In this document: in pieces, positions 45,805-64,000 of the stretch
Layout of the letters: each line of letters starts with the position of its first letter
Position numbering within the stretch: the first letter of the stretch is position 1
NCBI GenBank assembly: GCA_947475995.1
Contig: CANJNI010000019.1
Location: 1 to 64,000, forward strand
Reading direction: 5' to 3'
DNA from: Beijerinckiaceae bacterium
Lineage (GTDB): Bacteria > Pseudomonadota > Alphaproteobacteria > Rhizobiales > Beijerinckiaceae
Length of the DNA: 64,000 bases
Translations under genes and position numbers: made by a program
The notes under the pieces: model-generated
Seen by the model: only the letters and a program-made list of their open reading frames with translations
The model's database searches: none
Told to the model about the DNA's origin: nothing

Positions 45805-45841
45805 ACATTCTCAATGGCCGCAAACTGGCGGGAGGATGCCC

Positions 45842-48076: not shown

Positions 48077-48305
48077 ATCCGCCACAGCTTCCTCCGGATG
48101 TAGCACGGGTTTCCGCGCGATTTCTTGATGGGGCGATCTATCGCGAAAGGTCATCCGAAGGCCAGAGATTTTCGCGGCCGCCCGCTGCAGACCTCCCGAA
48201 CCGCGCCAGGCCGGATTTGCGCGAGGTCAAGGCGAAGCACTGCCGTTCGGGCTTTTCTTTTTTCAAGATGGGGATTTTTGCAACGCAACATGAGTGGAGG
48301 AAGGC

Positions 48306-49995: not shown

Positions 49996-51762
49996 ATGCA
50001 ATCAAAACGCATAGCAGGCGGCCTTGCCGTCTCGCTGCTTCTTGCAACAGCACTGTCCACCGCGCAGGCGGCTGACATGACGTTCGACCGTGCGGTCAAC
50101 GCCGACAAGGAGCCGCAAAACTGGCTTTTGCATCACAAGAATTATTCCGCCCACCGCTTTTCGCAATTGAAGGACATCAACACTTCGACCGTGAAGAATC
50201 TCCGTATGGCGTGGACTGTCGCGCTGAGCGGCTACCAGAGCGGCGGACGCTATGAGTCCGGCAATCTCGAAGTGACGCCGATTGTCGAAAACGGCGTGAT
50301 GTACGTGACCGACGGCTGGGGTTCTGTTTACGCGCTCGACGTCAAGAGCGGCCGCAAGGCCGACATGCTTTGGAAGATGGATCCCGGCACCGATCGCGCA
50401 TGGGCCGGCGACGTCGCCTGCTGCGGCGTCAACAATCGCGGCGTTGCCCTGTGGAAGGACAAGGTCGTTTCCATCGCGCTCGACGGCCGCATTTTCCTGA
50501 TCAACAAGGAAACCGGCGAAATGCTGTGGGAGCGCAAGGTCGGCGAGCCCGCAGTGGGCGAGACGATCACGGCGGCTCCGCTTGTGGTGCGCGACGTTGC
50601 GATCACCGGCTCGGCCGGCGGCGAATTCGGCATCCGCGGCTGGCTTGACGGAACCGATCTCAACACCGGCAAGCAGGCCTGGCGCACGTTCACGATTCCC
50701 GGACCCGGCGAGCCCGGACACGAGACGTGGAAGGACGGCAAGAATCACTATCTCCACGGCGGCGCTTCCGTGTGGGTCACTCCGACCTACGATCCCGAAC
50801 TCGACACCTTCTACGTCGGCGTCGGCAATGCAGGTCCCGACTACGATCCGGATTTCCGTCCGGGCGACAACAAGTGGGCCGCATCGGTTCTGGCGATGGC
50901 GCCGGGCGACGGCAAGATCAAGTGGGGCTTCCAGTACACGCCGAACGATCCCTACGACTACGACGAAATTTCGGAACATCCCTTGATCGACGCGAAGATC
51001 AACGGACAGGACCGCAAGCTCGTCACGCATGGCGCGCGCAACGGTTTCTACTATGTGCTCGATCGCGCCAACGGATCGTTTGTGGCCGGCAAGCAGTATA
51101 TCGACAAGCTGACCTGGGCGACGGGCCTCGACCCGAAGACCGGCATGCCGCTCGAATACGATCCCAAGCTCGACGTGCAGCAGTACGTGAAGGGCACGGT
51201 CGCAAACCGCGCACGCCCCAACGGCGACGTGAAATGTCCGACCACGACGGGCGGCAAGAACTGGGAGCCGTCAGCCTACAATCCGGATCTCAACCTGATG
51301 TACCTGCCGACGGCAGAGGGCTGCAATTCCCTCGTCATGCAGGCGCAGGCTGACTTCAAGGATCAGGGCGGCACGGTGAATCCGCGCGATCGCTTCACGG
51401 GCGGCTCCGGCAAGCCGGCAGGCGATGTGACGGGCGCGATCAAGGCGGTCGATCCGGTGACGGGTGAAACCCGCGCCACTGCGCGCTGGAAATATCCGAA
51501 CTGGTCCGGCGTTCTGGCCACTGCGGGCAACGTGATCTTCGCCGGTTGGCTCGATGGCGAGTTCAAGGCCTACGACGGCAAGACGTTGGAAGAACTGTGG
51601 GCCTTCAACACCGGTTGCGGCATCAAGGCGCCGCCGATCAGCTACTCGGTGAACGGCAAGCAATACGTCACGGTTGCGGCCGGACCGTTCTTCCTCGGCA
51701 CCAAGCCGCCAGACCTGAAGAATGCCGCCACCTGCTCGATGGTTTACACGTTCACGCTGTAA
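49996..51762 (+). CDS. PQQ-dependent alcohol dehydrogenase 1, lanthanide-type active site
   Basis: A 588-residue periplasmic quinoprotein with an eight-bladed propeller. Signal peptide ends near Ala25-Ala26. Active-site features: vicinal disulfide Cys142-Cys143 (GDVACCGVNN), metal ligands Glu210 (AGGEFGIRG), Asn278 (VGVGNAGPD), catalytic Asp321 and the extra Asp323 (PYDYDEI). The D-x-D pair marks lanthanide-dependent enzymes; calcium enzymes have Ala or Ser at the second position. Arg348 (HGARNG) contacts PQQ. There is no heme domain, so electrons leave through a separate cytochrome. The clade does not look like classic XoxF; the substrate alcohol is unknown. It ends at a strong terminator. 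Confidence 0.92.
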   Translation: MQSKRIAGGLAVSLLLATALSTAQAADMTFDRAVNADKEPQNWLLHHKNYSAHRFSQLKDINTSTVKNLRMAWTVALSGYQSGGRYESGNLEVTPIVENGVMYVTDGWGSVYALDVKSGRKADMLWKMDPGTDRAWAGDVACCGVNNRGVALWKDKVVSIALDGRIFLINKETGEMLWERKVGEPAVGETITAAPLVVRDVAITGSAGGEFGIRGWLDGTDLNTGKQAWRTFTIPGPGEPGHETWKDGKNHYLHGGASVWVTPTYDPELDTFYVGVGNAGPDYDPDFRPGDNKWAASVLAMAPGDGKIKWGFQYTPNDPYDYDEISEHPLIDAKINGQDRKLVTHGARNGFYYVLDRANGSFVAGKQYIDKLTWATGLDPKTGMPLEYDPKLDVQQYVKGTVANRARPNGDVKCPTTTGGKNWEPSAYNPDLNLMYLPTAEGCNSLVMQAQADFKDQGGTVNPRDRFTGGSGKPAGDVTGAIKAVDPVTGETRATARWKYPNWSGVLATAGNVIFAGWLDGEFKAYDGKTLEELWAFNTGCGIKAPPISYSVNGKQYVTVAAGPFFLGTKPPDLKNAATCSMVYTFTL

Positions 51763-51787
51763 GCCGACGCAAAGGCTACGATTGACG

Positions 51788-51822
51788 AAGGCCGGTGAAG
51801 GGTAATTCACCGGCCTTTTTTT
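51788..51822 (+). terminator. Rho-independent terminator after dehydrogenase 1
   Basis: A 12-bp stem AAGGCCGGTGAA / TTCACCGGCCTT with a 6-base loop is followed by a T run, 25 bases after the stop. It separates the two dehydrogenase genes transcriptionally. Confidence 0.9.
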
Positions 51823-51827
51823 GCGGC

Positions 51828-51861
51828 TTTGCACAAGACCATTTTGCTGCTCTGCACAAGA
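51828..51861. promoter_or_regulatory. direct repeat of TGCACAAGA upstream of dehydrogenase 2
   Basis: TTTGCACAAGA (51828-51838) recurs as TCTGCACAAGA (51851-51861), 23 bases apart, just after the terminator and about 175 bases before the second dehydrogenase. Two-turn spacing suits a dimeric activator. Role inferred. Confidence 0.35.
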
Positions 51862-52036
51862 ATAGACAGATTGTCGCAGGCCTCGTGTTGTTACAATCAA
51901 ATCACCGGTGACGCTCCCGATTGCCGCGGGACGCAATTGACGGTCGCGCGGCGGAATGCAAAATGGGTCGTTGCGCAGTCTGCGCATTCGCGTGGCCGGA
52001 GCGCAAAAATGCTTCGACCACTTTCGGGGGAAACCG

Positions 52037-53818
52037 ATGAACCACATCAAAACTACCGGCATGCTCGCGGGCATGCTGCTTGCAGCAACGGCATTGTCGC
52101 CGGCGATGGCCGCCGACATGACCATGGAACGCGCCCTCAAGGCCGATTCCGAACCGGGAAACTGGATCCTTCATGCCCAGAACTATGAAGGTCACCGCTT
52201 CTCGCGTCTGAAGGAAATCACTGCCGAAAACGCCAAGAACCTCAAGCTCGCCTATACGGTCGCGCTCGGCGGTTACCAGAGCGGCGGTCGTTATCCGCAC
52301 GGCAACCTCGAAGGCACGCCTCTCGTTGACGACGGCATTGCCTACGTGACGGACGGCTGGGGCTCGGTCTACGCTGTCGACGCTTCCGCCAACAAGCGCG
52401 GCAGCCGCGTGATCTGGAAGATGGACCCCGGCACCGATCGCGCCTGGGCAGGCGACGTGGCTTGCTGCGGCGTCAACAACCGCGGCGTTGCGCTCTGGAA
52501 GGACAAGATCGTCTCCATCGCGCTCGACGGTCGTCTCTTCCTGATCGAGAAGAAGACCGGCGAAATGCTGTGGGAAGCCAAGGTCGCTGAGCCGGCCGTG
52601 GGCGAAACCATCACCCTCGCCCCGCTCGTCATCCGCGACGTCGCCATCACCGGCTCCGCCGGCGGCGAATTCGGCATCCGCGGCTGGTACGACGCTGTTG
52701 ACCTCAACACCGGCAAGCAGAAGTGGCGCACCTTCATGATTCCGGGACCGGGCGAACCCGGCCACGAGTCCTGGAAGGGTGGCGGAAACCGCTGGAAGCA
52801 CGGCGGCGCCTCGGCTTGGGTCACCCCGACCTTCGACAGCACGCTGAACCTGATCTACGCCGGCGTCGGCAACCCGGGCCCGGACTGGGATCCGGATTAT
52901 CGCCCTGGCGACAACAAGTGGGCTTCGTCGGTCGTCGCCATGAATCCGGATGACGGCAAGATCAAGTGGGGCTTCCAGTACACCCCGAATGATCCGTATG
53001 ACTTCGACGAAATTTCGGAGCATCCGATCGTCCGCATGAAGATCAACGGCCAGGACCGTACGGTCATGACCCATGCGGCCCGTAACGGCTTCTACTACTC
53101 GCTCGACGCAGCCAACGGCTCGTTCATCACCGGCAAGCAGTATGTCGACAAGCTGACCTGGTCCACGGGCCTCGACCCCAAGACCGGCATGCCGCTCGAA
53201 TACGATCCGAAGAAGGACGTGCAGGACTACATCGCCAGCATGACGCCGCGCCGCTCGCGTCCGACCACGGACGTGAAGTGCCCGACGACCTCAGGCGGCA
53301 AGAACTGGCAGCCGACTGCGTTCAATCCTGACCTGAACATCATGTACATCCCCTCGGCGGAAGGCTGTAACAAGCTGACCCTCGTGGTTCAGAAGGATTG
53401 GGAAGACGAGCCGGGTGGCACCGTCAAGCCGCGCGACCGCTTCACCGGCGGTGGCGGCGTGAACCAGGGCCGCATCGAAGGCTCCGTCAAGGGCGTCGAT
53501 CCGCTCACGGGCGAAATGAAGGTCAAGACCGCGTATCGTTACCCGAACTGGGCGGGCCTGATGGCCACTGCCGGCAACCTGATCGTTACGGGTTGGCCGG
53601 ACGGCGAGTTCGTGGCCTACGACGCCAAGACTCTTCAGGAAGTCTACACCTACTCGACGGGCTGCGGCATCAACGCTCCTCCGGTGACCTACACGGTCGC
53701 CGGCAAGCAGTACATCGGCCTGCTGGTCGGTTCGATCCAGAAGGCGGCGATCCTGCAGGATTCGCCGGAGCTGAAGAACTCGGCGACCTGCTCCATGTTC
53801 TACGCATGGGCGCTCTGA
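52037..53818 (+). CDS. PQQ-dependent alcohol dehydrogenase 2, lanthanide-type active site
   Basis: A 593-residue periplasmic paralogue of the preceding gene; in the segment around residues 132-233 I count about 90 of 102 identical positions. It keeps signal peptide (ends near AMAADM), vicinal Cys143-Cys144, Glu211, Asn279, catalytic Asp322 and the extra Asp324 (PYDFDEI), so it is also predicted to use a lanthanide. ATG 52037 follows GGGGG by seven bases; upstream in-frame sequence is not signal-like. It has its own leader region and terminator, suggesting separate control from copy 1. The next gene is a c-type cytochrome. Confidence 0.93.
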   Translation: MNHIKTTGMLAGMLLAATALSPAMAADMTMERALKADSEPGNWILHAQNYEGHRFSRLKEITAENAKNLKLAYTVALGGYQSGGRYPHGNLEGTPLVDDGIAYVTDGWGSVYAVDASANKRGSRVIWKMDPGTDRAWAGDVACCGVNNRGVALWKDKIVSIALDGRLFLIEKKTGEMLWEAKVAEPAVGETITLAPLVIRDVAITGSAGGEFGIRGWYDAVDLNTGKQKWRTFMIPGPGEPGHESWKGGGNRWKHGGASAWVTPTFDSTLNLIYAGVGNPGPDWDPDYRPGDNKWASSVVAMNPDDGKIKWGFQYTPNDPYDFDEISEHPIVRMKINGQDRTVMTHAARNGFYYSLDAANGSFITGKQYVDKLTWSTGLDPKTGMPLEYDPKKDVQDYIASMTPRRSRPTTDVKCPTTSGGKNWQPTAFNPDLNIMYIPSAEGCNKLTLVVQKDWEDEPGGTVKPRDRFTGGGGVNQGRIEGSVKGVDPLTGEMKVKTAYRYPNWAGLMATAGNLIVTGWPDGEFVAYDAKTLQEVYTYSTGCGINAPPVTYTVAGKQYIGLLVGSIQKAAILQDSPELKNSATCSMFYAWAL

Positions 53819-53839
53819 GTCTCTAGCATTTGACTACAG

Positions 53840-53865
53840 CCGGCGCGATCGTATGATCGCGCCGG
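53840..53865 (+). terminator. hairpin terminator after dehydrogenase 2
   Basis: A perfect 11-bp stem CCGGCGCGATC / GATCGCGCCGG with a GTAT loop, followed by TTTGATTT. It lies 22 bases after the stop and may attenuate read-through into the cytochrome gene. Confidence 0.8.
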
Positions 53866-53978
53866 TTTGATTTGAAGAACAACAAGAAAACCAAGCGGCC
53901 CTTCGGGGTCATGCCGTCAACAAGAACAACCGCAACGCTGCTCGGCGGTTAGGTGCTGGGAACACAAAGGCTCTCGAA

Positions 53979-54497
53979 ATGAAAAAGCTCTACGGATTCA
54001 TGTTCGCGGCTGCCGCCGCTTTCGCACTCACGGTTTCGTCCGCCAGCGCCCAGACCCCGGCGCCTACTGAATCCGCCGCTGATCTGCGCGAGATCGAATA
54101 TGGCAAGGACATCTTCAAGACGAAGGCGAACTGCCAGTTCTGCCACAAGTGGGACGGTTCGGGCGACCAGGGATACGGCGGCAATGCGCTTCCGCTGCGC
54201 ACGACGGAACTGACGCTGGAGCAGTTCGTGGAAACCGTGAAATGCGGCCGCATCGGAACCGGCATGCCCTACCATGACCGTTTCGCGTATAACGACAAGC
54301 GCTGCTATGACACCACGCGCGAAGAACTCGGCAACGACACGCCGCCGATCGCCAACGAATATCTGCAGCCGCGTGAAATCGCCGCTGTCGCCAAATACGT
54401 CTTCGCCCGCCAGAAAGGCCGCGGCGTGAAGGGATCGTATGAGGATTGCCTGGACTTCTGGGGCAAGGAAAGCAAGCAGTGCGAACAGTTCAAGTAG
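53979..54497 (+). CDS. periplasmic c-type cytochrome, probable electron acceptor of the PQQ dehydrogenases
   Basis: A 172-residue monoheme cytochrome. Signal peptide ends near SASAQ (residue 25). Heme is bound at Cys52-x2-Cys55-His56 (CQFCHKW), and Met96 in GTGMPYHD is the likely axial ligand. Four further Cys (89, 109, 157, 168) could form two disulfides, an unusual number for a small class I cytochrome. Position directly after the two dehydrogenases gives it the XoxG/MxaG role by context; sequence alone does not prove that. Confidence 0.85.
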   Translation: MKKLYGFMFAAAAAFALTVSSASAQTPAPTESAADLREIEYGKDIFKTKANCQFCHKWDGSGDQGYGGNALPLRTTELTLEQFVETVKCGRIGTGMPYHDRFAYNDKRCYDTTREELGNDTPPIANEYLQPREIAAVAKYVFARQKGRGVKGSYEDCLDFWGKESKQCEQFK

Positions 54498-54501
54498 TCG
54501 C

Positions 54502-55242
54502 ATGAAAATCGCCGGATCCCTGCGTTCCATTCTTTTTTCGGCCTGCTTCGGGCTGGCTGCGCTTGGCGCGGCCAGTGCCCAGGAGCTTCCGGTGGATGAT
54601 CGCACGAGCGACATTCACGGCTTGAAGCTCGGCATGGTCGCCGACGACATGGATACGCGAGGATACGGCGAGTTCGCCTGCGGCAGCAATGGCGGCGCCC
54701 CGCGCGCGCAATTGACCGACTGGACTGAATTCAAGAAGTGCAGGCCCGAGCCGAACGGACTTTACGAAGTTTACGTTCGCATCGACGATCAGGTGGAATA
54801 TCTGAGCAAGGCCTATGACGACCCGACGATCGCCACCAACAAGCGCGGTACGACGGTGGCCGGGCATCCGGTGATCCTGTCCGTCCTTTTCGACAAGGAC
54901 GGCGTGGGCCGGATGATCCGCTTCGTCACAGACCCCCGCGCCGATGTCTCGGCGCGTCGCGTGGCGCAGCTGTTGCGCATCACGGTGAGCAATCAGTACG
55001 GACCGCGTGGCTGGGAGTGCAAGGACATCCCGCCGCAGGAAGGTGAATCGCCGGTCGGCGGCGTGTTCCATCATTCCTTCTGCGTCAAGAAGTTCGCCGG
55101 CAAGACAATCACGATTCTCGCCAAGTTCTTCCGCAAGCCCGGTCAGGCGGACATTGATCCTGTGACCAAGCAGTACCATGCGGGCTACTTCGAAAGCTCG
55201 ACACGAGTCGAGATTTTCGACGATACGGTCAAGACCCAGTAG
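54502..55242 (+). CDS. secreted protein of unknown function in the PQQ dehydrogenase locus
   Basis: A 246-residue exported protein; signal peptide about 1-26 (LFSACFGLAALGAASAQ). The mature part begins with DDRTSDIHGLKLGMVADDMD, has a GYGEFACGSNGG loop and four Cys, but no cofactor motif that I recognise. It starts 4 bases after the cytochrome stop, so it is cotranscribed with it. It is not an MxaJ/XoxJ-type binding protein. A chaperone or maturation role is possible by context only. Confidence 0.7.
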   Translation: MKIAGSLRSILFSACFGLAALGAASAQELPVDDRTSDIHGLKLGMVADDMDTRGYGEFACGSNGGAPRAQLTDWTEFKKCRPEPNGLYEVYVRIDDQVEYLSKAYDDPTIATNKRGTTVAGHPVILSVLFDKDGVGRMIRFVTDPRADVSARRVAQLLRITVSNQYGPRGWECKDIPPQEGESPVGGVFHHSFCVKKFAGKTITILAKFFRKPGQADIDPVTKQYHAGYFESSTRVEIFDDTVKTQ

Positions 55243-55344
55243 GCGAAAATTCGCCGCTTACCTCTGGAAGCCCGCCGCGCCTTGCCTATATGTTTAAGGC
55301 ATAAGAGGCATGCAAGCCTCGCGGGCGTTCACAGGGGAGACATC

Positions 55345-55590
55345 ATGAAATACATCATCATGACGGCCGCTTTGGTCGTGGCTGCAGCTTTTGCGCCCTC
55401 GCCGGCGAAGGCCAACGGCTGCATCAATTGCCTCGTGCAAAGCAGCACGCCGGTCGCCGGCAGTCCTGGCAAGTTCCAGTTTCGCGTCGTCTGCATCGAG
55501 CTTCTCAGCGGCGACGAGATCGCTTCGCTGATTACGGCTTCAACCGAAGAAGAAGCCCTGAAGATCATGGACGAAACGAAGTGCAAATAA
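55345..55590 (+). CDS. small secreted CxxC protein
   Basis: An 81-residue exported protein. Signal peptide MKYIIMTAALVVAAAFAPSPAKA ends near residue 23; the mature part begins NGCINCLVQ with a CxxC pair and has two more Cys. AGGGGAGA precedes ATG 55345. No family is recognised; a redox or metal-binding role would fit the Cys content. It is the last plus-strand gene before the bidirectional terminator. Confidence 0.7.
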   Translation: MKYIIMTAALVVAAAFAPSPAKANGCINCLVQSSTPVAGSPGKFQFRVVCIELLSGDEIASLITASTEEEALKIMDETKCK

Positions 55591-55616
55591 GCGGCTTCTT
55601 CCGCATCGCATAACCA

Positions 55617-55643
55617 AAGGGCCGCGCTAACAGCACGGCCCTT
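55617..55643. terminator. bidirectional terminator between convergent operons
   Basis: AAGGGCCG (55617-55624) pairs with CGGCCCTT (55636-55643) around an 11-base loop, 26 bases after the plus-strand stop and 26 bases before the end of the convergent pentapeptide gene. T- and A-rich flanks serve both directions. Confidence 0.75.
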
Positions 55644-55669
55644 CTTCATTTCCAGATTCCCGGACCGTC

Positions 55670-56443
55670 CTACTCGTTGCGCTTTCCATCCGGCATGATG
55701 GCGGCGTCGAATTTCGCGCCCTCGAGCTGGGCGCCAGTCAGGATGGCTCTTTCGAGGTTCGCGCCTTCGAAATCCACGTCCCGCAAATCGGCGCCGTTCA
55801 GGTTCGCGCCGAAAAGATTGACGCCGGCAAGCTTGGCGCCACGCAGGTTCGCACTGCGCAGATCCGTCTCGATCATGTCGCCCATCGTGAAGTCGATGCC
55901 CGCAAGATTCTGTTCGCGCAGATTCATCCTGTCGAGGCGCGCGCCCTTCATCGAGACTCCCTGCAACTTCGCGGCAGGCAAGCGAGCATCCCGCATGTCG
56001 GCGCCGTCCAGATTGGCGCCCTCGAGATTGGCGCCGTTCAACCGCGCCTTGCCCAACCGCGTCCCCGAAAGGTTTGCGCCTTTCAGATTTGCGCCGCTCA
56101 GATCGGCCTCGAACAGCAAGGCTCCTTCGAGATTGGCGTTCGACAAATCGGCGAATTTGGCGTCGATCCTGTTCAGGTCGGCGTTTTTCAGCAGTGCGCC
56201 GGAAAGATTGGCTCGCTGCAAGTTGCTGCGGAACAGGACAGTGCTTTCAAGCTTCGCGCCCGCCAGATTGGCCTTGTCGAGACGCACGCGCCCGAGATCG
56301 CGAGAGGAGAAATCCATGCCCGACAGATCGCACGATGAACATGTGCGCGACGTTCCGGCACGGAATGCATCCGTAGCCTCGTCCGCCAGCGCCGCGCCAC
56401 TTGCAAGCGACAGTGCAAAAGCCGCTGAGACAAACTTCTTCAT
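55670..56443 (-). CDS. secreted pentapeptide-repeat protein
   Basis: A 257-residue exported protein. Signal peptide AAFALSLASGAALA ends near residue 20, then TCSSCDLSGMDF opens about 35 consecutive A(D/N)LxX pentapeptides (for example ANLEGANLDGADMRDARL) that form a right-handed quadrilateral beta-helix. It closes with a short charged tail. Periplasmic location is unusual for the well-studied gyrase-protecting members, which are cytosolic. It is the last gene of the molybdoenzyme operon, 30 bases after the previous one. Function unknown; scaffolding is a guess. Confidence 0.8.
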   Translation of the reverse strand: MKKFVSAAFALSLASGAALADEATDAFRAGTSRTCSSCDLSGMDFSSRDLGRVRLDKANLAGAKLESTVLFRSNLQRANLSGALLKNADLNRIDAKFADLSNANLEGALLFEADLSGANLKGANLSGTRLGKARLNGANLEGANLDGADMRDARLPAAKLQGVSMKGARLDRMNLREQNLAGIDFTMGDMIETDLRSANLRGAKLAGVNLFGANLNGADLRDVDFEGANLERAILTGAQLEGAKFDAAIMPDGKRNE

Positions 56444-56473
56444 AAGCAGTCTCCCTTGCAGGTTAGAGATCCA

Positions 56474-57403: not shown

Positions 57404-57424
57404 TCGCACTCACAGGCTCAATGA

Positions 57425-57832
57425 TTACAGCCCGCTGATCTTCAGGGATTCATCCAGCAGAAACAGATCAGTGAGCAGGGCTCTTACGTGGATGGATGCA
57501 TTGAGATTGTCAATGATCTGGGAGCCGATGTTGTGCTGCGAAAGCACGAATCTGAAAGCAGCCTGCGCCTTGCGCGCATCGTCATTCACGACGTCAAGGA
57601 AGCTCTGCACGTCCGCGGTCGCCTGGCCGCCCTTCAACCCGACCAGTTCGGGAGTCAGGGCGCGCAGGACGTCCATGGCAGCGACGGAACGCTTGAGGAG
57701 TTCACGCGCAGGTCCACCGTCTTCCTCCACCCGGCGTCCCTGCGCCGCATAGGCAAGCATGAACTCGTAGGTTTCCTCGACCGTGTCGATGGCGGCAGCG
57801 ACAACGCCGACGCCCTCATTTGCGGAGGCCAT
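57425..57832 (-). CDS. small helical protein of unknown function in the molybdoenzyme operon
   Basis: A 135-residue, probably all-helical soluble protein with no signal peptide, membrane segment or Cys. Recognisable only are amphipathic helices such as TVEETYEFMLAYAAQGRR and DDARKAQAAFRFVLSQHN. AGGGGA lies six bases before the ATG. It lies between the cytochrome b and the dehydrogenase-like gene, both on the same strand. A cytosolic assembly factor for the exported oxidoreductase is one possibility. Confidence 0.65.
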   Translation of the reverse strand: MASANEGVGVVAAAIDTVEETYEFMLAYAAQGRRVEEDGGPARELLKRSVAAMDVLRALTPELVGLKGGQATADVQSFLDVVNDDARKAQAAFRFVLSQHNIGSQIIDNLNASIHVRALLTDLFLLDESLKISGL

Positions 57833-57878
57833 ACTTTATCCCCTGAACAGGTTGTATCCGACCCACGCGATGCGGATC

Positions 57879-58556
57879 TTACTTCTTGGTCTCTGCCGGC
57901 CACCGCGACGGATCATGATGCGCCTTGTATTCCTTGCCGGAAATCCATCCGCGGAACATGGACCGCAGCAGGTGCCATTCATCCGGGCGCAGCGCAAAAT
58001 AGATATGGATCAATACCATGCTGACCATGAACATGGCCGCAAAACCGTGGATCGCGTAGATATATCCCCAGTCGGAGTCGCCGAGCCAGTAGGGATTGCG
58101 CTTCCAGAACGGCGTATCAATCTTCGTCAGCATCGCCAGACCGGTGCCGATCACCGACAGGATGAAGAATGCGACACCCAGATGATAAAGCTTCTGCAGC
58201 GCATTGTATTTGCCGGGCTTGACGGGTGCGGGCGCATCCTGGCCCATCGCGCGCTTGACGATCCGCACCCCGTTCTTGACGTCGGTCGGCGTGACCACCA
58301 TGGACATGCGGTCCTGGAAAATCACTGCGCGCACAATGTGGATCAGCACGCAGACAGCAAGCACGACGCCAGCAATCCAGTGAATGGTGAGCCACTCGAA
58401 CTTGATTCCGAAAATCGGCAAAAAGGCGGAGCCCATAAGGGCGAAAACAGATCCGGCCATGATCCAGTGATAGAGCCGGTCAACAAGCTTGTGGCGGACA
58501 ACGCGCCCGGTGTCGAGACCGGGCGCGTTGTTGTTCTTCAGTTCCGTGACAGCCAT
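57879..58556 (-). CDS. membrane b-type cytochrome (formate dehydrogenase gamma / hydrogenase cytochrome b family)
   Basis: A 225-residue integral membrane protein with four helices (about 31-49, 57-78, 122-145, 168-190). Candidate heme-b ligands are His30, His59, His73, His125, His170 and His184 in DRLYHWIMAGS, TIHWIAG, VLIHIVRA, KLYHLGV, YAIHGFA and MVLIHIYFAL. Family members take electrons from a periplasmic dehydrogenase and reduce quinone. It lies in one operon with a PaoABC-like aldehyde oxidoreductase, so it is a likely membrane partner of that enzyme. Confidence 0.88.
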   Translation of the reverse strand: MAVTELKNNNAPGLDTGRVVRHKLVDRLYHWIMAGSVFALMGSAFLPIFGIKFEWLTIHWIAGVVLAVCVLIHIVRAVIFQDRMSMVVTPTDVKNGVRIVKRAMGQDAPAPVKPGKYNALQKLYHLGVAFFILSVIGTGLAMLTKIDTPFWKRNPYWLGDSDWGYIYAIHGFAAMFMVSMVLIHIYFALRPDEWHLLRSMFRGWISGKEYKAHHDPSRWPAETKK

Positions 58557-58575
58557 TTAATGCAACTCTCGCTAT

Positions 58576-58740
58576 TCAGTGTGCTTCTTGATTCCGCTTT
58601 CCGGTCAGGAACTTCAGTGCAGCATGAACCACAATGAAGGCAGCGGCGGCGGCTACGAACCAACCAAACAGGTCCCATGAGGCCCCGATGATATTGGCGT
58701 CGCCGCCGTAGAGCGACCTCGAATAACGAAACAGTTCCAT
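58576..58740 (-). CDS. 54-residue single-helix membrane protein next to the cytochrome b
   Basis: A short gene read from ATG 58740 to TGA 58576. The product begins MELFRYSRSLYGGDANIIGA and has one strong transmembrane helix (about 25-46, FGWFVAAAAAFIVVHAAL) with a basic tail GKRNQ. It lies 8 bases after the FAD subunit gene and 19 before the cytochrome b gene, so it is tightly packed in the operon. I recognise no family; a small anchor or heme-stabilising subunit of the cytochrome b complex is inferred from position and topology. Confidence 0.7.
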   Translation of the reverse strand: MELFRYSRSLYGGDANIIGASWDLFGWFVAAAAAFIVVHAALKFLTGKRNQEAH

Positions 58741-58748
58741 TACTGACC

Positions 58749-59747
58749 TCAGGCCTTGGCTTCACGCACCGCGCGCGTGACAAGATTCGCCATCAGCGGA
58801 ATCTTGAACTGGTTGTAGTTCAGCGGACGCGCACCGCGCGTCGCCGACTGACCGGCCAGTTTCGCCAGATCCGCATTCTGCGGCTTGCCCTTGACGATCG
58901 CTTCGACCGCCTCGAGACGACGCGGAACAGCGCTGACCGCGCCGCAAACGATGCGGCAATCCTCGATCGTGCCGTTCTTGACAATCATCGCCGCAGCGAC
59001 GTTCACCAGAGCGAAGTCCCAGGCATTACGGTCGGCCACCTTCTCGAAGTAGAAGTTGGCGCCCGCAAAGGTCTTCGGCACGCGGATCGCGACCAGGACT
59101 TCTTCAGGACGGATCGACGTCAGGTGGGTGATGTCGATCTTCGGTCCAATGAAGAATTCCGAGGCGCTGAGCACGCGCTCGCCCTTCGAGCTGCGCAGCA
59201 CGAACTTCGCATCGAGAGCCGTGAAGGCCGGAGCCGTATCCGAAGGATTCACGGTGACGCAACGATCCGTATCGAACAGCGCGTGCTCGCGGTTCACGCC
59301 TTCCGGCGTATCCGCGAAGCAGGTGTTGCCGCCGGCGCGATAGCACGGCAGACCGCCGCGATAGTACCAGCAGCGGGCATCCTGAGCGACGTTGCCGCCA
59401 ACGGTGCCGACGTTACGGATCTGCGGGCTGGCCACCTTCGAGGCGGAGTCGGACAGAATCCGGTACTTCGCCTTGATGATGGGGTTGTTGGCCAGCTCGG
59501 TGAGAGTGGTCATCGGACCAATCTCGATTCCGTCCGCCGTCTCCTTCACCCCGGACATGTCCGGGAGGTTGGAGAGGTCGATCACCGCCTTCGGGCGCTT
59601 GGCGCGGTCCTTGAACCACGACAGCGAGTCGTGCGCTCCGGCCATCTTCCAGCCGTCCTTCCCGTAACGATCGAGAAGGGTGAACGCGTCTTTCAGGGTC
59701 GCAGGCCGAAACAACTCAAAGTTCGGCATCATGTCCTTGACGAGCAT
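58749..59747 (-). CDS. paoB: PaoB-like FAD/[4Fe-4S] subunit of periplasmic aldehyde oxidoreductase
   Basis: A 332-residue medium subunit of the xanthine oxidase family. FAD motifs AGAHDSLSWFK and TVGGNVAQDARC are seen. The insert after DARC contains Cys at CWYYRGGLPC, CYRAGGNTC and DTDRCVTVNPSD; four such Cys bind an extra [4Fe-4S] cluster in E. coli PaoB and in HcrB. It relays electrons between the [2Fe-2S] subunit and FAD. It has no signal of its own, so export would be with the small subunit. AGGAGA lies seven bases before the ATG. Confidence 0.9.
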   Translation of the reverse strand: MLVKDMMPNFELFRPATLKDAFTLLDRYGKDGWKMAGAHDSLSWFKDRAKRPKAVIDLSNLPDMSGVKETADGIEIGPMTTLTELANNPIIKAKYRILSDSASKVASPQIRNVGTVGGNVAQDARCWYYRGGLPCYRAGGNTCFADTPEGVNREHALFDTDRCVTVNPSDTAPAFTALDAKFVLRSSKGERVLSASEFFIGPKIDITHLTSIRPEEVLVAIRVPKTFAGANFYFEKVADRNAWDFALVNVAAAMIVKNGTIEDCRIVCGAVSAVPRRLEAVEAIVKGKPQNADLAKLAGQSATRGARPLNYNQFKIPLMANLVTRAVREAKA

Positions 59748-59759
59748 TTCGTTATCTCC

Positions 59760-62162
59760 TCAGACCGTATTGATCTGCAGCGGCTTGTGCGCCTGAGGAC
59801 GCCCGGCCAGGTGGTTGATGATCATGTCCGCCGAGACCGGCGTACGGTTAAACAGGTGACCACCCAGCGCATCAGAAATGGCGGAAGTGATCGCCGCAGC
59901 GCCCGAACCCACAACCGGTTCGCCCACGCCCTTCACACCCATCGGGTTCGAAGGATCGGCCTTTTCGACCGCAGCAGTCTTGATGTTCCGGGGAACGTCA
60001 AGCCATGACGGCGGCTTGGCCTGGTAGAGCTTGCCGGCAGCCGGCAGACCCAGCTTGGGATCGTACACGCGACGCTCGAGCGCCACCTGGCCGATGCCCA
60101 TGATGTTGCCGCCGCGCATCTGGGCCGCGAGACCCATCGGATGCAGGACGGTGCCGCAGTCAGCCACGCAGACCATTTCGTTGATGTGGATCTTGCCGGT
60201 TTCGGTATCGAGCTCGATCTCAGCCATGGTGGTGGTGAGGCCGGGCGTCAGACCGACGCGCGGGAGCGTGTCCTTCGCGACAGCAACAAGACCAGTGCCG
60301 GCGACCATCGTCAGGGCGTCGACCGTGACCGGGTTGATGTCCTTCGGGGGCTCCTTGCCCACATACTTGCCACCCAGTTCCATGGCCTTCTGCGCAGCCT
60401 GCGCGAAGGTGATGGACTTGGACGGATCGGCCTTGCTGACGACCTTCTCTTCACCGAGATCGTAATCAGCCGGCTGACCGCCGAGCATCTGGGCCGCAAT
60501 GTCGAACAGCTTGTTCTTCATGTCGACGGCAGCCACGTACATGGTACGGGACTGGGTCGAGGCCGAGAGGCTGCCCGCCTGGTTGCTGTTCCACGGCAGG
60601 CCGCGACGGCTGTCGCCGCGCTCCACAATGGAGTTCTCCCAACGCGCATTGAGCAGTTCGGCGGCCACGCGAGCCGTCGCGCCATGCGAGTGGGTGCCGA
60701 GGTTGCCGACGCCGGTGTGGATGTGCAGCTTGCCATCCGGGGTGATGCGCAGCAGACCATCGAAGCCGTTCGAACCGGCCGTGTGATAGCCCTGGCCGAT
60801 GCCGACGCCGATCAGCTTGGTGCCGACCTTCTGGCCCGACTTCTTCTTGCGCTCTTCCCAGTTGAACATCTGGGCAGCCTTTTCCGTCGCTTCCTTGAGG
60901 AACGCGCTGGTGACGGGAGCCTGGTCGGCGCCGATCTTGGACTGCGGATGCGGGCTGTTCATCAGACGGATCGCAACGCGATCGATGTTCAACGCACGAG
61001 CGGCCTTGTCGATGATGGGTTCGAGCGAAGCCGTGAACTGGTTTTCACCCGGACCGCGGAACGCGCCGACCGGCGGCGTGTTCGTCAGCACCGGAATACC
61101 GCGCCAGCGCATGGATTCAGGCTGATAGACCATCGACAGGGCGTTGCCGGCCGCGCGGAAGTCGCCGGCGCCGAGATACGGACCGTTCTCCTGCACGACG
61201 TAAAGGTCGGCGGCGAGGATCTTGCCGTCTTCCCGGAAGCCCATCTTGATGCGGGCCTGGAAGGTCGGACGGGCGCTGCCGATGGCGTATTCGTCGTCAC
61301 GCGTCAGGCGGTTCATGACCGGACGCTTCAGCTTCTTCGACATGAGGGCTGCAACCGCCATGTTCGGATAGCCGCCGATCTTCGAACCGAAGCCGCCGCC
61401 GCAGAATTCCGCAATCATCACGAGATCTTCCGGCTTGATGCCGACGAAACGCGCGATGTTCGGAACAGCCGCCGTGTGGCTCTGGTTGGAGACGTGCAGG
61501 AAGCACTTGTCGCCCTGCCAGTAAGCGAAGGTCGTGCGGGGCTCCATCGAGTGATGGGGATGGCCGCCGGCCACGAACGTCTCGTCGACGACGAGCTTGG
61601 AAGCCTTGAAGCCGGCTTCGACATCGCCGTACTTCCACTCTTCCGCGGGCTTGCCCATCGGGAGCTTGTCGTCACCCGAGGCGGCAAAGTCGGCGGCATC
61701 CCACTTGGCGACCTGCAGGTTGATCTGCGCGCCGGCCACGTTGCCGTTCGAACGAGCGTTCGGACCGCCCGGGAAAAGGCTTTCCAGCGGATCGGTCACG
61801 TGCGGAAGCATTTCGAAGTCGATCTTGATCGCCTCGATCGCCTCGGCGCAGAGCAATTCGCTCTCTGCAGCCACAGCCAGGATCGGCTCACCGACGAAGA
61901 AGGTTTCGTCCTTGGCGAGGATCGGCGGCTGGGGCGGCGGGAACTGCGGCACTTCGTCGGCCATCAGCACGCCGAGCACACCCTTGATCTTGAGGGCGGC
62001 GGACGTGTCGATGCGGCGAATGCGAGCATGCGGGACGGGGCTCGTCAGCAGCTTGCAGAAAACCATGCCTTCGGCGCGGAAGTCCTCGGCATATTTCGCG
62101 GCGCCGGTGACGCGCGCTTCCATATCCAGGGGAATAAAGTTTTGTCCGACCAGCTTGGCCAT
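59760..62162 (-). CDS. paoC: PaoC-like molybdenum-cofactor subunit of periplasmic aldehyde oxidoreductase
   Basis: An 800-residue catalytic subunit of the xanthine oxidase family that oxidises an aldehyde to an acid at Mo. N-terminal RVTGAAKYAEDF, the Moco loops EFCGGGFGSKIG and GAFRGPGENQ, and the active-site Glu748 in GVKGVGEPVVGSG are intact. No signal peptide is present, as in PaoC, which crosses the membrane by riding on the Tat-bearing small subunit. It starts one base after paoA and ends 12 bases before paoB. The gene order is small-large-medium, unlike E. coli paoABC (small-medium-large). Confidence 0.92.
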   Translation of the reverse strand: MAKLVGQNFIPLDMEARVTGAAKYAEDFRAEGMVFCKLLTSPVPHARIRRIDTSAALKIKGVLGVLMADEVPQFPPPQPPILAKDETFFVGEPILAVAAESELLCAEAIEAIKIDFEMLPHVTDPLESLFPGGPNARSNGNVAGAQINLQVAKWDAADFAASGDDKLPMGKPAEEWKYGDVEAGFKASKLVVDETFVAGGHPHHSMEPRTTFAYWQGDKCFLHVSNQSHTAAVPNIARFVGIKPEDLVMIAEFCGGGFGSKIGGYPNMAVAALMSKKLKRPVMNRLTRDDEYAIGSARPTFQARIKMGFREDGKILAADLYVVQENGPYLGAGDFRAAGNALSMVYQPESMRWRGIPVLTNTPPVGAFRGPGENQFTASLEPIIDKAARALNIDRVAIRLMNSPHPQSKIGADQAPVTSAFLKEATEKAAQMFNWEERKKKSGQKVGTKLIGVGIGQGYHTAGSNGFDGLLRITPDGKLHIHTGVGNLGTHSHGATARVAAELLNARWENSIVERGDSRRGLPWNSNQAGSLSASTQSRTMYVAAVDMKNKLFDIAAQMLGGQPADYDLGEEKVVSKADPSKSITFAQAAQKAMELGGKYVGKEPPKDINPVTVDALTMVAGTGLVAVAKDTLPRVGLTPGLTTTMAEIELDTETGKIHINEMVCVADCGTVLHPMGLAAQMRGGNIMGIGQVALERRVYDPKLGLPAAGKLYQAKPPSWLDVPRNIKTAAVEKADPSNPMGVKGVGEPVVGSGAAAITSAISDALGGHLFNRTPVSADMIINHLAGRPQAHKPLQINTV

Positions 62163-62163
62163 T

Positions 62164-62817
62164 TCAAGCCTCCTTCGAAGCGCGCATGACCGCGTTCAGG
62201 TAGTGGTTGTAAGCTCCGCAACGGCAGAGGTTGCCCGACAGGGCCACCATCACTTCGTCTTCGGTCGGCTTGGCGTTCTGGTTGAGCAGAGCGACGGCGG
62301 TGACGATCTGGCCCGGGGTGCAGAAGCCGCACTGCGGGGCGAGCTCTTCCATCATGGCCTTCTGGACCTTGTGGAGCTGGCCGTTCGGGCCGGCGATGCC
62401 TTCAATCGTGACCACCTTCTTGCCGCGGACGCGCTGCGTCAGCGTGGTGCAGGAATAGGTCGCGACGCCGTCCACCAGGACGGTGCAGTTGCCGCACTCG
62501 GAATGGTCGCAGCCGATCTTGGTGCCGGTGAGGCCGAGCTTGTAGCGCAGGGTCTGGACCAGCGTCTCCTGCGGCAGCACGTCGACGGTGCGATCGTTGC
62601 CGTTGACGTTGAGACGCACCATGCGCTCGACGGCGCCGGCGGTCTGGGCAGCAGCTTCCGTGGAACGGCCGGCGACGACATAACCCGTCGACGAAACCGC
62701 AACACCCGAAGCTACCACGCCTTTAATGACATCACGCCGCGATGCACGCAGGCCGGTCTCTCCGGCCTCGTGGTCGTGAGCGTGCTGACATGTCGTATGT
62801 GTATCGTGTTCTGACAT
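62164..62817 (-). CDS. paoA: PaoA-like [2Fe-2S] subunit with Tat signal and a His-rich N terminus
   Basis: A 217-residue small subunit. Residues 1-20 are rich in His (4, 7, 12, 14, 16) with Cys10, then a Tat signal (RASRRDVIKGVVASG, Arg27-Arg28). Two [2Fe-2S] sets follow: Cys103/108/111/123 (plant type) and Cys163/166/198/200 (CGFC and CRC). The Tat signal places the whole oxidoreductase in the periplasm. The His-rich extension before the twin arginines is unusual and could bind metal in the cytosol before export. ATG 62817 follows GAGAGGG. Confidence 0.9.
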   Translation of the reverse strand: MSEHDTHTTCQHAHDHEAGETGLRASRRDVIKGVVASGVAVSSTGYVVAGRSTEAAAQTAGAVERMVRLNVNGNDRTVDVLPQETLVQTLRYKLGLTGTKIGCDHSECGNCTVLVDGVATYSCTTLTQRVRGKKVVTIEGIAGPNGQLHKVQKAMMEELAPQCGFCTPGQIVTAVALLNQNAKPTEDEVMVALSGNLCRCGAYNHYLNAVMRASKEA

Positions 62818-63037
62818 GAGCGCCCTCTCAACAAGGTGGACGAGCAGTCGCACCGACTGGTGTTCGTTCCCGCCCAACCAAAAATGTTGTCACTGTAAAG
62901 AACCATAGCGCTCCGCCAAACTCAATAGGTCTGGATGGCAGTTCGCTACAAATTCTCGTCACCATATTGCTGCAATGCAAATCAAATGCATTACAAACAA
63001 TTCTTTCAGAGCCCGGCACGATGCGACCGCAAGAATC
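62818..63037. promoter_or_regulatory. AT-rich leader of the molybdoenzyme operon
   Basis: A 220-base spacer between the Sel1 gene and paoA, clearly AT-richer than the surroundings. It contains a perfect dyad AATGCA-N7-TGCATT (62974-62992) about 155 bases upstream of the paoA start, a candidate operator. I cannot fix a -35/-10 pair. Confidence 0.35.
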
Positions 63038-63547
63038 TCACGGTTTGCGAAGGCCGAACTTCAATCTCATATCGTCGATCATATGATAGCTCTCCCGCAT
63101 GTCCGCTTCGGAGACATATGATATAGCCATATCTCGACAAAACTGTCCGTCGGGCTGGCCGAAGTCCTGCGCAATCTGGCACCAGGCCAGCGCGTGAATG
63201 TAACTTTGCGGAACCCCCGTTCCGTAAAGATACAACAGCCCCAGCATCAACTGGCCTTCGGGCTGCCCCTGGTCGGCGGCGCGCTGGAACCACTTGGCGG
63301 CGGCGGCATTGTCGGCCGCCGTCCCCAGACCCTTGTGGAACATGAAGCCGATCCCCGCCTCGGCCCGGGCATCGTGGTCCTCGGCCAGCGGCGTCCAGGC
63401 TTCGAAAGCCGTCTTGAAGTCCCCTGTATTGAACGCCGTCAAGCCTCGCCCGAACTCCTTGTCGCGTTGAGCGTCCGTGGCTGCATGGCCGATGCTCGCA
63501 ACGGCCATGACCAAAAGAGCGATGAGTGCAGCCCTGGGCCGAATCAT
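63038..63547 (-). CDS. secreted Sel1-repeat protein
   Basis: A 169-residue exported protein. Signal peptide ALIALLVMAVASIGHAA ends near residue 23. Two or three Sel1/TPR-like repeats follow (ARAEAGIGFMFHKGLGT and EGQLMLGLLYLYGTGVPQ with paired helices), then a C-terminal helix containing two Cys. Such repeats mediate protein contacts. ATG 63547 gives a proper signal peptide; the longer frame overlaps the cytochrome gene. It lies between the edge cytochrome and the aldehyde oxidoreductase and may help assemble them. Confidence 0.82.
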   Translation of the reverse strand: MIRPRAALIALLVMAVASIGHAATDAQRDKEFGRGLTAFNTGDFKTAFEAWTPLAEDHDARAEAGIGFMFHKGLGTAADNAAAAKWFQRAADQGQPEGQLMLGLLYLYGTGVPQSYIHALAWCQIAQDFGQPDGQFCRDMAISYVSEADMRESYHMIDDMRLKFGLRKP

Positions 63548-63587
63548 TTGCCCGTTGCTCCCGTGCGGCGTCCTGACGCGGGTGACA

Positions 63588-64000
63588 TTAATCCACTTTC
63601 GCCGTTCTCGGGAAGGGGGTGAATCCATCCCGGTTCGGCATCTGGACCTTGGGCAGGGTCTGGGCGTCCATCACCTCGTCGGCCTTGATGATGCCATTCA
63701 GGTTGAAGATGTAGGCCGAAACCGCATAGATCTCGTCGCTGGTCAGCGACTTCGGTTCGTTCCACGGCATTGCGCGGCGGACATAATCGAAGAACGTCGT
63801 CGGATAAGGCCAGAAGCTGCCGACCGTCTTCAATGCGGGCTTGTCGCCGGGCAACGAGCCCTGCCCGCCCACCAGCACGTCGTTCGGGCGACCGGCGCCC
63901 TTTTCACCGTGGCAGGCCTGACATTTGGCGGCATAGACCGCCTCGCCTTGCTGCACAGTGCCCTTGCCGGACGGAAGGCCGACGCCGTCCGGGCCGACGC
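63588..64000 (-). CDS. c-type cytochrome (partial at window edge)
   Basis: The 3' part of a cytochrome gene whose start lies beyond the window. The visible 136 codons include heme motif CQACHGEKGAGRPND and the downstream VRRAMPWNEPKSLTSDEIYAVSAYIFNLNG, where Met in the AMPW segment is the likely axial ligand. The upstream VGPDGVGLPSGKGT linker suggests a second domain or longer N terminus. It is on the same strand as the aldehyde oxidoreductase operon, 40 bases before the Sel1 gene, and could be an electron acceptor for it. Confidence 0.87.
   Translation of the reverse strand, partial: VGPDGVGLPSGKGTVQQGEAVYAAKCQACHGEKGAGRPNDVLVGGQGSLPGDKPALKTVGSFWPYPTTFFDYVRRAMPWNEPKSLTSDEIYAVSAYIFNLNGIIKADEVMDAQTLPKVQMPNRDGFTPFPRTAKVD

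What the first reader, a model, noticed from the sequence alone, without database searches (positions are those of the whole stretch)
49996..64000. Periplasmic alcohol-to-acid oxidation island pairing lanthanide-type PQQ dehydrogenases with a PaoABC-like molybdoenzyme
Two tandem PQQ alcohol dehydrogenases with the D-x-D lanthanide signature, a cytochrome c, and two unknown secreted proteins converge on an operon with a Tat-exported aldehyde oxidoreductase, a cytochrome b, a 54-residue membrane protein and a further cytochrome c. The simple reading is that an alcohol is oxidised to an aldehyde by the quinoproteins and then to an acid by the molybdoenzyme, all outside the cytosol, with two electron outlets. 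I do not know a described system with this set. The link between the two convergent operons is inference.
Basis: partly seen in the sequence, partly recalled or inferred. Interest (0 to 1): 0.75.

Follow-up and report, generated by a model that had tools for sequence, protein, structure and literature searches.

The report
Alcohol-oxidation gene island with embedded molybdoenzyme
A bacterium carries, twice, a long gene block in which a widespread but unstudied exported molybdenum enzyme with its own membrane partner sits inside the gene set of rare-earth-type alcohol dehydrogenases, probably so that an alcohol is turned into an aldehyde and then an acid outside the cytoplasm.

Summary
The minus-strand run goes on about 8 kb past the window end, and a 20-gene block (MotA/ExbB-like and two membrane-type proteins, lut-type ABC genes, NosR-like protein, ApbE, SoxCD-like pair, Sel1, PaoABC-like enzyme, 54-aa protein, cytochrome b561, 135-aa protein, NAD dehydrogenase, pentapeptide protein) recurs in the same order on a second contig. 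Two modules meet. (1) PQQ dehydrogenase, cytochrome c and P0004: P0004 occurs in the same 7 of 199 family genomes as P0001-type dehydrogenases, beside one in each. (2) A predicted Tat-exported Mo-hydroxylase with p54, cytochrome b and p135, found in MAGs of several phyla. In this genome they are interleaved with dehydrogenase-partner genes, so coupling here is plausible but unproven. p54 fused to the cytochrome in two genomes supports a membrane electron outlet. Nearby hydroxycinnamate and LigXa-type genes suggest lignin-type aromatic alcohols. PaoABC membership fails at curated cut-offs. New variant of known kinds.

The parts
44729..45697 (-). Flavin/FeS oxygenase reductase (aromatic context)
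   Evidence: NCBIfam hits to reductase components, best 101.3 bits, under cut-off
45836..47152 (+). Rieske oxygenase with LigXa-type C-terminal domain
   Evidence: PF19301 517 bits, PF00355
47252..48154 (-). p-Hydroxycinnamoyl-CoA hydratase/lyase (makes aromatic aldehyde)
   Evidence: NF006588 359.2 bits over cut-off 276; 57% identical homologue 3.6 kb from a dehydrogenase of genus mate G119
48294..49250 (+). Extradiol-dioxygenase-like protein
   Evidence: PF00903; TIGR02295/TIGR03211 under cut-off
49996..51762 (+). PQQ alcohol dehydrogenase 1, D-x-D type (P0001)
   Evidence: TIGR03075 519.0 bits; D321-x-D323
52037..53818 (+). PQQ alcohol dehydrogenase 2, D-x-D type (P0002; listed ORF starts 51956)
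   Evidence: TIGR03075 492.8 bits; 68% identical to P0001; D-x-D
53979..54497 (+). Secreted monohaem cytochrome c (CQFCH)
   Evidence: PF13442/PF00034; homologues beside dehydrogenases in other genomes
54502..55242 (+). Secreted protein of no known family (P0004, 'sec267'), dehydrogenase partner
   Evidence: No Pfam or PDB sequence relative; same 7 of 199 genomes as P0001-type ADH and beside one in each
55345..55590 (+). Small secreted protein ('sec81')
   Evidence: Homologues convergent to the Mo operon in L031, L032, L033, L066
55670..56443 (-). Secreted pentapeptide-repeat protein
   Evidence: PF00805 207 bits; beside ADH modules in L112, L113, L163 and after NADdh in L029, L004
56474..57409 (-). 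3-Hydroxyisobutyrate-dehydrogenase-like NAD(P) enzyme
   Evidence: PF03446, PF14833; homologue in 9 of 54 core loci
57425..57832 (-). p135: helix-bundle protein of an unnamed family, no signal or TM-like stretch
   Evidence: 35 of 54 core loci, 0 of 26 others; model pLDDT 93.2; no TM-like segment; no Pfam family for the window protein
57879..58556 (-). Cytochrome b561/FdnI-like membrane subunit
   Evidence: PF01292 81 bits; FdnI 1kqf_C match, E 0.0011; His22, 30, 59, 73, 125, 170, 184 in 38 of 38 rows
58576..58740 (-). p54: one-TM protein, partner of the cytochrome b
   Evidence: 31 of 54 core loci; fused to cytochrome b in L035 (same contig as L109) and L036; one TM-like segment
58749..59747 (-). 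FAD subunit with four-Cys [4Fe-4S]-type insert (PaoB-like)
   Evidence: PF00941, PF03450; Cys126/135/143/163 in 56 of 58 rows; stretch aligned to the Cys-rich stretch of 5y6q_B
59760..62162 (-). Molybdenum subunit (PaoC/HbaC-like)
   Evidence: Best PDB match 1rm6_A 216.8 bits, then 5y6q_C, PaoC; Glu748 aligned with the Glu of the PaoC KGVGE motif, invariant in the 20 rows of A1
62164..62817 (-). 2x[2Fe-2S] subunit with Tat-type signal SRRDVIKG (PaoA-like)
   Evidence: PF01799, PF00111; RR motif in 57 of 64 PaoA-type hits
63038..63628 (-). Secreted Sel1-repeat protein
   Evidence: PF08238; upstream of the Mo genes in 9 of 54 core loci
63588..64000 (-). SoxD-like cytochrome c, cut by the window end (full ORF L003:3589-4284)
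   Evidence: PF13442; adjoining SoxC-like gene passes TIGR04555, 564.2 over 420 bits

Best explanation
The region is a periplasmic oxidation island put together from two separable modules. Module 1: D-x-D (lanthanide-type) PQQ dehydrogenases oxidise an alcohol, probably a lignin-derived aromatic one, to an aldehyde, with a dedicated cytochrome c and the partner protein P0004; lut-type ABC genes serve cofactor or metal homeostasis and the NosR-like/ApbE pair is a membrane electron conduit for it. Module 2: a Tat-exported Mo hydroxylase of an unstudied clade oxidises the aldehyde to the acid; electrons go Mo, 2x[2Fe-2S], FAD/[4Fe-4S], then to the cytochrome b561 with the one-helix p54 and so to quinone; p135 is a cytosolic helper. 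In this lineage module 2 has been placed inside the module-1 neighbourhood and the whole block duplicated. Shown: gene content, motifs, conservation, the second copy, the p54-cytochrome b fusion. Inferred: export, substrates, lanthanide use, electron path, coupling of the two steps.
For: 20-gene block present twice in one order. P0004 in the same 7 of 199 genomes as the ADH and beside one in each, 0.3-0.9 kb away. In G119 the set ADH-cytc-P0004-pentapeptide-permease-ABC binding-YVTN-ATPase is adjacent without Mo genes, and in G167 the MotA/ExbB-like trio follows ADH-cytc-P0004; in the window's genome the Mo genes lie between those halves. A NosR/ApbE pair follows five PQQ enzymes in G352 and, more weakly, lies near YVTN/ABC genes in G375; NapH-like clusters with ExaA are in print for 172 genomes (PMC8238504, passages and section 17). 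L093: lut-type genes directly upstream of Sel1-PaoABC, with the only TIGR03075 match of that genome (E up to 1e-60) 6.4 kb away, matched by its coordinates. p54 fused to cytochrome b in two genomes. An aldehyde dehydrogenase gene precedes the ADH in G144 and G073. Hydroxycinnamoyl-CoA hydratase/lyase near the dehydrogenases of G000 and G119. PaoABC of E. coli prefers aromatic aldehydes (PMC3958847, passages).
Against: Module 2 is far more often found without module 1 (0 of 54 at 40% identity or more; 5 of 54 with any PQQ propeller). PQQ dehydrogenases in the flanks of 3 of 41 loci against 0.71 expected, P = 0.03, weak, and the observed and expected values use different hit criteria. 12 of 41 genomes with the Mo core have no TIGR03075 match at E up to 1e-60 (MAGs, so may be incomplete). 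The Mo subunit scores higher to 4-hydroxybenzoyl-CoA reductase than to PaoC. SoxCD-like and Sel1 have no place in the scheme. Neither G000 nor G119 has a pqqC match, so PQQ would have to come from outside. The C28 dehydrogenase of G000 and the C103 one of G119 have no P0004 beside them. No Pfam FMN-binding hit in the NosR-like protein.
Confidence: 0.5

Rival explanations
1. The Mo module is an independent mobile operon with its own substrate (for example an aromatic or N-heterocyclic compound from outside), and its place beside the dehydrogenases only reflects the clustering of catabolic genes.
For: Module 2 stands without PQQ dehydrogenases nearby in most relatives and in 12 of 41 genomes without a TIGR03075 match; sporadic in the family, 2 of 199; genus mate G119 carries a copy from another branch of the tree on another contig; higher score to 4-HBCR than to PaoC.
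Against: Interleaving with lut-type, NosR/ApbE and pentapeptide genes, kept in order in two copies of 56-91% protein identity; lut-type genes upstream of the Mo operon also in L093, near the only TIGR03075 match of that genome.
Confidence: 0.33
2. The Mo enzyme is a general detoxifier of aromatic aldehydes, needed because of aldehyde-producing enzymes nearby (hydroxycinnamoyl-CoA lyase as well as dehydrogenases), not a growth pathway step.
For: Detoxification role proposed for PaoABC in PMC3958847 (passages); aldehyde-forming lyase at 47252-48154.
Against: A cytochrome b561 gene in 35 of 54 core loci suggests respiratory use.
Confidence: 0.12
3. The dehydrogenases are Ca or inactive quinoproteins; the D-x-D motif is inherited and says nothing of lanthanide use, and the strain cannot make PQQ.
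For: No pqqC match in G000 and G119; best pqqE match of G000 far under cut-off; weak matches also ring in all 14 control genomes, none over the cut-off.
Against: All 11 PQQ propellers found in the genome keep D-x-D, TIGR03075 passed, vicinal CC in the sequence, lut-type genes in the same block; PQQ scavenging is known in other bacteria (recalled).
Confidence: 0.05

Closest known systems
PaoABC periplasmic aldehyde oxidoreductase (E. coli)
   Same: Three subunits, Tat signal on the [2Fe-2S] subunit, four-Cys FAD subunit, xanthine-oxidase-family Mo subunit
   Different: NCBIfam PaoC 253.4 of 1180 and PaoA 145.9 of 322 bits needed; extra cytochrome b561, p54, p135; the terminal acceptor of PaoABC was unidentified according to PMC3958847 of 2014
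4-Hydroxybenzoyl-CoA reductase
   Same: Best-scoring known Mo subunit (350.1 bits TIGR03194; 1rm6_A 216.8 bits)
   Different: Far under the 994.55 cut-off; Tat-type signal here, no CoA substrate expected outside the cytosol (inference)
Lanthanide-dependent PQQ alcohol dehydrogenases (PedH, XoxF)
   Same: TIGR03075, D-x-D as in 6zcv/6zcw (PedH by recall), cytochrome c beside
   Different: Own subgroup with P0004 partner; no pqqC match in the genome
lut / Ped-type ABC system
   Same: TIGR03861 and TIGR03866 passed; lutA, B, E, F roles in La transport in PMC7391723 (passages)
   Different: TIGR03863 under cut-off; here in one run with NosR/ApbE, SoxCD and Mo genes; homology to the Lut proteins is recalled, not aligned
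NapH-like flavinylated systems with ExaA
   Same: NosR-like polyferredoxin + ApbE near PQQ dehydrogenases (PMC8238504)
   Different: NF046105 NosR 539.4 of 1000 bits; the words PQQ, SoxC and molybd do not occur in the main text of that paper
Formate dehydrogenase N gamma subunit (FdnI)
   Same: Cytochrome b561 family, aligned to 1kqf_C
   Different: Match is weak (E 0.0011; TIGR01583 50.2 of 115.85 bits); stands beside a xanthine-oxidase-family enzyme with a separate p54 helix

Membership tests
Lanthanide-dependent PQQ alcohol dehydrogenase | TIGR03075 over curated cut-off | tested here: met
   519.0 and 492.8 against 480.05 bits
Lanthanide-dependent PQQ alcohol dehydrogenase | D-x-D metal-site motif | tested here: met
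   D321/D323 aligned to D-x-D of 6zcv/6zcw; 18 of 18 aligned enzymes
Lanthanide-dependent PQQ alcohol dehydrogenase | Activity needs Ln3+ | not testable with these tools
   needs assay
PaoABC aldehyde oxidoreductase | NCBIfam PaoC and PaoA equivalog cut-offs | tested here: not met
   253.4/1180 and 145.9/322 bits
PaoABC aldehyde oxidoreductase | Tat signal on small subunit | tested here: met
   SRRDVIKG; RR motif in 57 of 64 hits, of which one (L083, 183 aa) looks like a chance match; of the 7 without, 6 are short and look like second enzymes, 1 probably an antisense frame
PaoABC aldehyde oxidoreductase | [4Fe-4S] cysteines in FAD subunit | tested here: met
   four Cys in 56 of 58 rows, stretch aligned with 5y6q_B
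PaoABC aldehyde oxidoreductase | Aldehyde oxidation | not testable with these tools
   needs assay
4-Hydroxybenzoyl-CoA reductase | TIGR03194 cut-off | tested here: not met
   350.1 of 994.55 bits
SoxCD sulfane dehydrogenase | SoxC TIGR04555 cut-off | tested here: met
   564.2 over 420 bits
SoxCD sulfane dehydrogenase | Other sox genes in the genome | not tested
   no genome search left
lut/PQQ-ABC system | TIGR03861, TIGR03866 cut-offs | tested here: met
   359.8/241.35 and 327.5/287.3 bits
lut/PQQ-ABC system | TIGR03863 cut-off | tested here: not met
   342.0 of 413.6 bits
lut/PQQ-ABC system | TonB receptor lutH | not tested
   not searched
NosR | NF046105 cut-off | tested here: not met
   539.4 of 1000 bits
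NapH-like flavinylated protein | PF12801 polyferredoxin plus ApbE | tested here: met
   71 bits, and PF02424 216 bits in the next gene
NapH-like flavinylated protein | FMN-binding domain | tested here: inconclusive
   no Pfam FMN-binding hit at 1e-4

The most novel reading that the evidence does not exclude
A membrane-coupled periplasmic two-step oxidation machine for lignin-type aromatic alcohols: lanthanide quinoproteins with an unnamed obligate partner (P0004) make the aldehyde, and a new clade of Tat-exported Mo hydroxylases, wired to quinone by p54 and cytochrome b561 and matured by p135, makes the acid, in a bacterium that scavenges its PQQ; module 2 alone would be a widespread new respiratory enzyme of uncultured bacteria.
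Probability: 0.3. Interest if true: 0.72.

Novelty: new variant of a known kind. Interest (0 to 1): 0.52.

Why it matters
The terminal electron acceptor of PaoABC was unidentified according to PMC3958847 (2014, passages); this clade carries a conserved cytochrome b561 and a one-helix protein beside a similar enzyme, so the question becomes directly testable. It would also tie lanthanide quinoproteins to lignin-type aromatics; a text search for that (10 of 14 papers listed) showed no paper on it.

Tried and rejected

Faults of my own: the SoxD query was out of frame, so its SoxD hits do not count; it was replaced by the C12 copy, so the '100%' for SoxD is a self-match and is dropped. Scripts set the first residue of local queries to M and some queries begin a codon off the start. 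Gene lists (longest ORF first) and (codon score) are home-made and sometimes prefer antisense frames; the counts used here come from tblastn. L028, L035 and L109 look like pieces of one contig (G119; same length, identical Mo protein), so the p54-cytochrome b fusion is seen in two genomes. The 80 loci are the best 80 of 287 relatives, all titled as MAGs, and many flanks are cut by contig ends; 33 of 54 core loci have 9 kb or more downstream. The tree is a quick one without bootstrap; the p54/cytochrome b/p135 label is not one clade on it (6 label changes against 28.2 shuffled).

Literature: (all 10 searches, open-access library only); no paper with this gene set was seen in the listings, and (name of one organism) found none. 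Read: passages of PMC7391723, passages and section 17 of PMC8238504, passages of PMC3958847; the other papers were seen as listings only.
Full report
What is there. The window is G000:C19:1-64000 of a 4.14-Mb, 73-contig genome, and the contig goes on to 78,611. On the plus strand 49,996-55,590 hold two PQQ dehydrogenases (TIGR03075 passed, D-x-D), a monohaem cytochrome c, P0004 (no family) and a small secreted protein. Convergent, on the minus strand, are the pentapeptide protein, a 3-hydroxyisobutyrate-dehydrogenase-like enzyme, p135, cytochrome b561, p54, FAD subunit, Mo subunit and Tat-type FeS subunit, then, across the window end, Sel1, SoxD-like, SoxC-like (TIGR04555 passed), ApbE, NosR-like, PedC-type permease (TIGR03861 passed), ABC-binding protein (TIGR03863 under cut-off) and YVTN protein (TIGR03866 passed), ending about 7.8 kb past the window, with the ATPase gene divergent. 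Gaps within the Mo run are 1-46 bases by the coordinates; 220 bases separate PaoA from Sel1, so two transcripts are possible (inference).

A second copy. Contig C12 carries the same genes in the same order, from a MotA/ExbB-like gene to a pentapeptide gene cut by the contig end. Protein identities run from 56% (pentapeptide, partial) and 65-68% (NADdh, Sel1, ABC-binding, p135, one membrane-type protein) to 91% (PaoB, PaoC, permease) (SoxD not compared). In a quick tree the two Mo subunits are sisters, while the genus mate G119 (its contig looks identical to L035) carries a 61% relative on another branch. So the block was probably duplicated within this lineage.

Module 1 is real and separate. 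Among 199 family genomes a P0001-type dehydrogenase (E up to 1e-140) occurs in 7, and a P0004 homologue (E up to 1e-8) in 7, the same 7. In each of them every P0004 gene found lies 0.3-0.9 kb from a PQQ dehydrogenase; in G119 the neighbour is the C17 enzyme (E 2.6e-139), not the C103 one that passed the threshold, and the C28 dehydrogenase of the own genome has no P0004. The genomes are related, so 7 of 7 is not seven independent events. Cytochrome c homologues sit beside in 5 of the 6 other-genome loci with P0004 (not in L159). The own genome has further ADH-cytc-P0004-pentapeptide sets on C12 and C7. In G119 the set ADH-cytc-P0004-pentapeptide adjoins the four lut-type ABC genes, and in G167 the MotA/ExbB-like trio follows ADH-cytc-P0004, both without Mo genes there. 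An aldehyde dehydrogenase gene precedes the ADH in G144 and G073.

Module 2 is real and widespread. The alignment scan of named genomes kept the best 80 of 287 relatives, all titled as MAGs, from Pseudomonadota, Gemmatimonadota, Latescibacterota and others. PaoA or PaoB stands beside PaoC in 54 of 80 (both in 52); of those 54, p54 is found in 31, cytochrome b in 35, p135 in 35, Sel1 in 9, NADdh in 9; in the 26 others none of these. The ten Gemmatimonadota loci have PaoABC without p54, cytochrome b or p135. p54 is fused to the N-terminus of the cytochrome b in L035 and L036. The cytochrome b keeps seven His in 38 of 38 rows, the FAD subunit four Cys in 56 of 58, and the small subunit a twin-arginine signal (57 of 64 hits have the motif, one of them probably by chance; of the 7 without, 6 are short and look like second enzymes and one is probably an antisense frame). 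Invariant residues of the Mo subunit include Glu748, aligned with the Glu of the PaoC motif.

Are they coupled? In general weakly: 0 of 54 core loci have a dehydrogenase of 40% identity or more in the flanks held, 5 of 54 any PQQ propeller; in 41 genomes tested 3 have a dehydrogenase in the flanks against 0.71 expected (P = 0.03), and 12 of 41 have none in the genome at E up to 1e-60. PQQ propellers also lie near 13 of the 26 PaoC genes without PaoA/B. In this genome the Mo genes lie between the two halves of a dehydrogenase neighbourhood, together with NosR-like/ApbE, a combination that is in print beside ExaA-type enzymes in 172 genomes as a likely conduit, and with lut-type genes, whose relatives (by recall) transport La in Methylorubrum (PMC7391723, passages). 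L093 (Pseudolabrys) repeats lut-type genes plus Mo operon in another order, 6.4 kb from the only TIGR03075 match of that genome. I therefore hold coupling likely here and optional elsewhere.

Substrate. Upstream of the dehydrogenases lie a p-hydroxycinnamoyl-CoA hydratase/lyase (over its cut-off, opposite strand, 1.8 kb away), a LigXa-type Rieske oxygenase and an extradiol-like protein. A lyase of the same family (57% identical, over its cut-off) with a CoA-ligase-type protein (under its cut-offs) is found near the dehydrogenase cluster of G119. PaoABC prefers aromatic aldehydes. This points to lignin-type aromatic alcohols; it is an inference from two genomes, and in the five other ADH-module genomes no such gene was looked for beyond the loci read.

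Cofactor. All 11 PQQ propellers found in the genome keep D-x-D. pqqC has no match in G000, G119 and G578 but is present in 12 of 15 genomes tested, and the best pqqE match of G000 is far under the cut-off. If the missing 4% of the genome does not hide them, PQQ is scavenged.

Against. SoxCD and Sel1 are unexplained. The Mo subunit is nearer in score to 4-HBCR. Nothing here measures activity, and no FMN-binding domain was detected by Pfam in the NosR-like protein.

Noticed in passing
   Followed up: partly
G000 and G119 whole genomes: No pqqC match although dehydrogenase modules are present; all 11 PQQ propellers found in G000 carry D-x-D.
   Followed up: partly
L040, L054, L057, L075, L085 and others (26 of 80 loci): PaoC-type genes (54-58% identity) without PaoA or PaoB in the flanks held; Candidatus Rariloculus versatilis has three PaoC loci.
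   Followed up: no
L055, L075: SoxC/SoxD-like pair near a lone PaoC and a PQQ propeller in two gammaproteobacterial MAGs.
   Followed up: no
L153 (G541:C1:237000): NosR-ApbE-SoxC-SoxD in one run without Mo hydroxylase genes in the stretch read.
   Followed up: partly
L043, L046, L056, L062, L064: Six further gene families shared by five alphaproteobacterial loci beside the Mo genes, one of them Rieske-oxygenase-like (named from the sequence start only).
   Followed up: no
L003:12670-14684, C19 about 72.7-74.7 kb: MotA/ExbB-like protein with two unnamed membrane-type proteins, also behind ADH-cytc-P0004 in G167.
   Followed up: partly
L066: Record titled Candidatus Marinimicrobia but its Mo subunit groups inside alphaproteobacterial rows (72% identity); bin label or transfer in doubt.
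   Followed up: no
window 41515-43020: EutA-like reactivating factor, under cut-off (319.3 of 598 bits).
   Followed up: no
window 36259-37494: Cytochrome P450-type protein under every NCBIfam cut-off listed.
   Followed up: no
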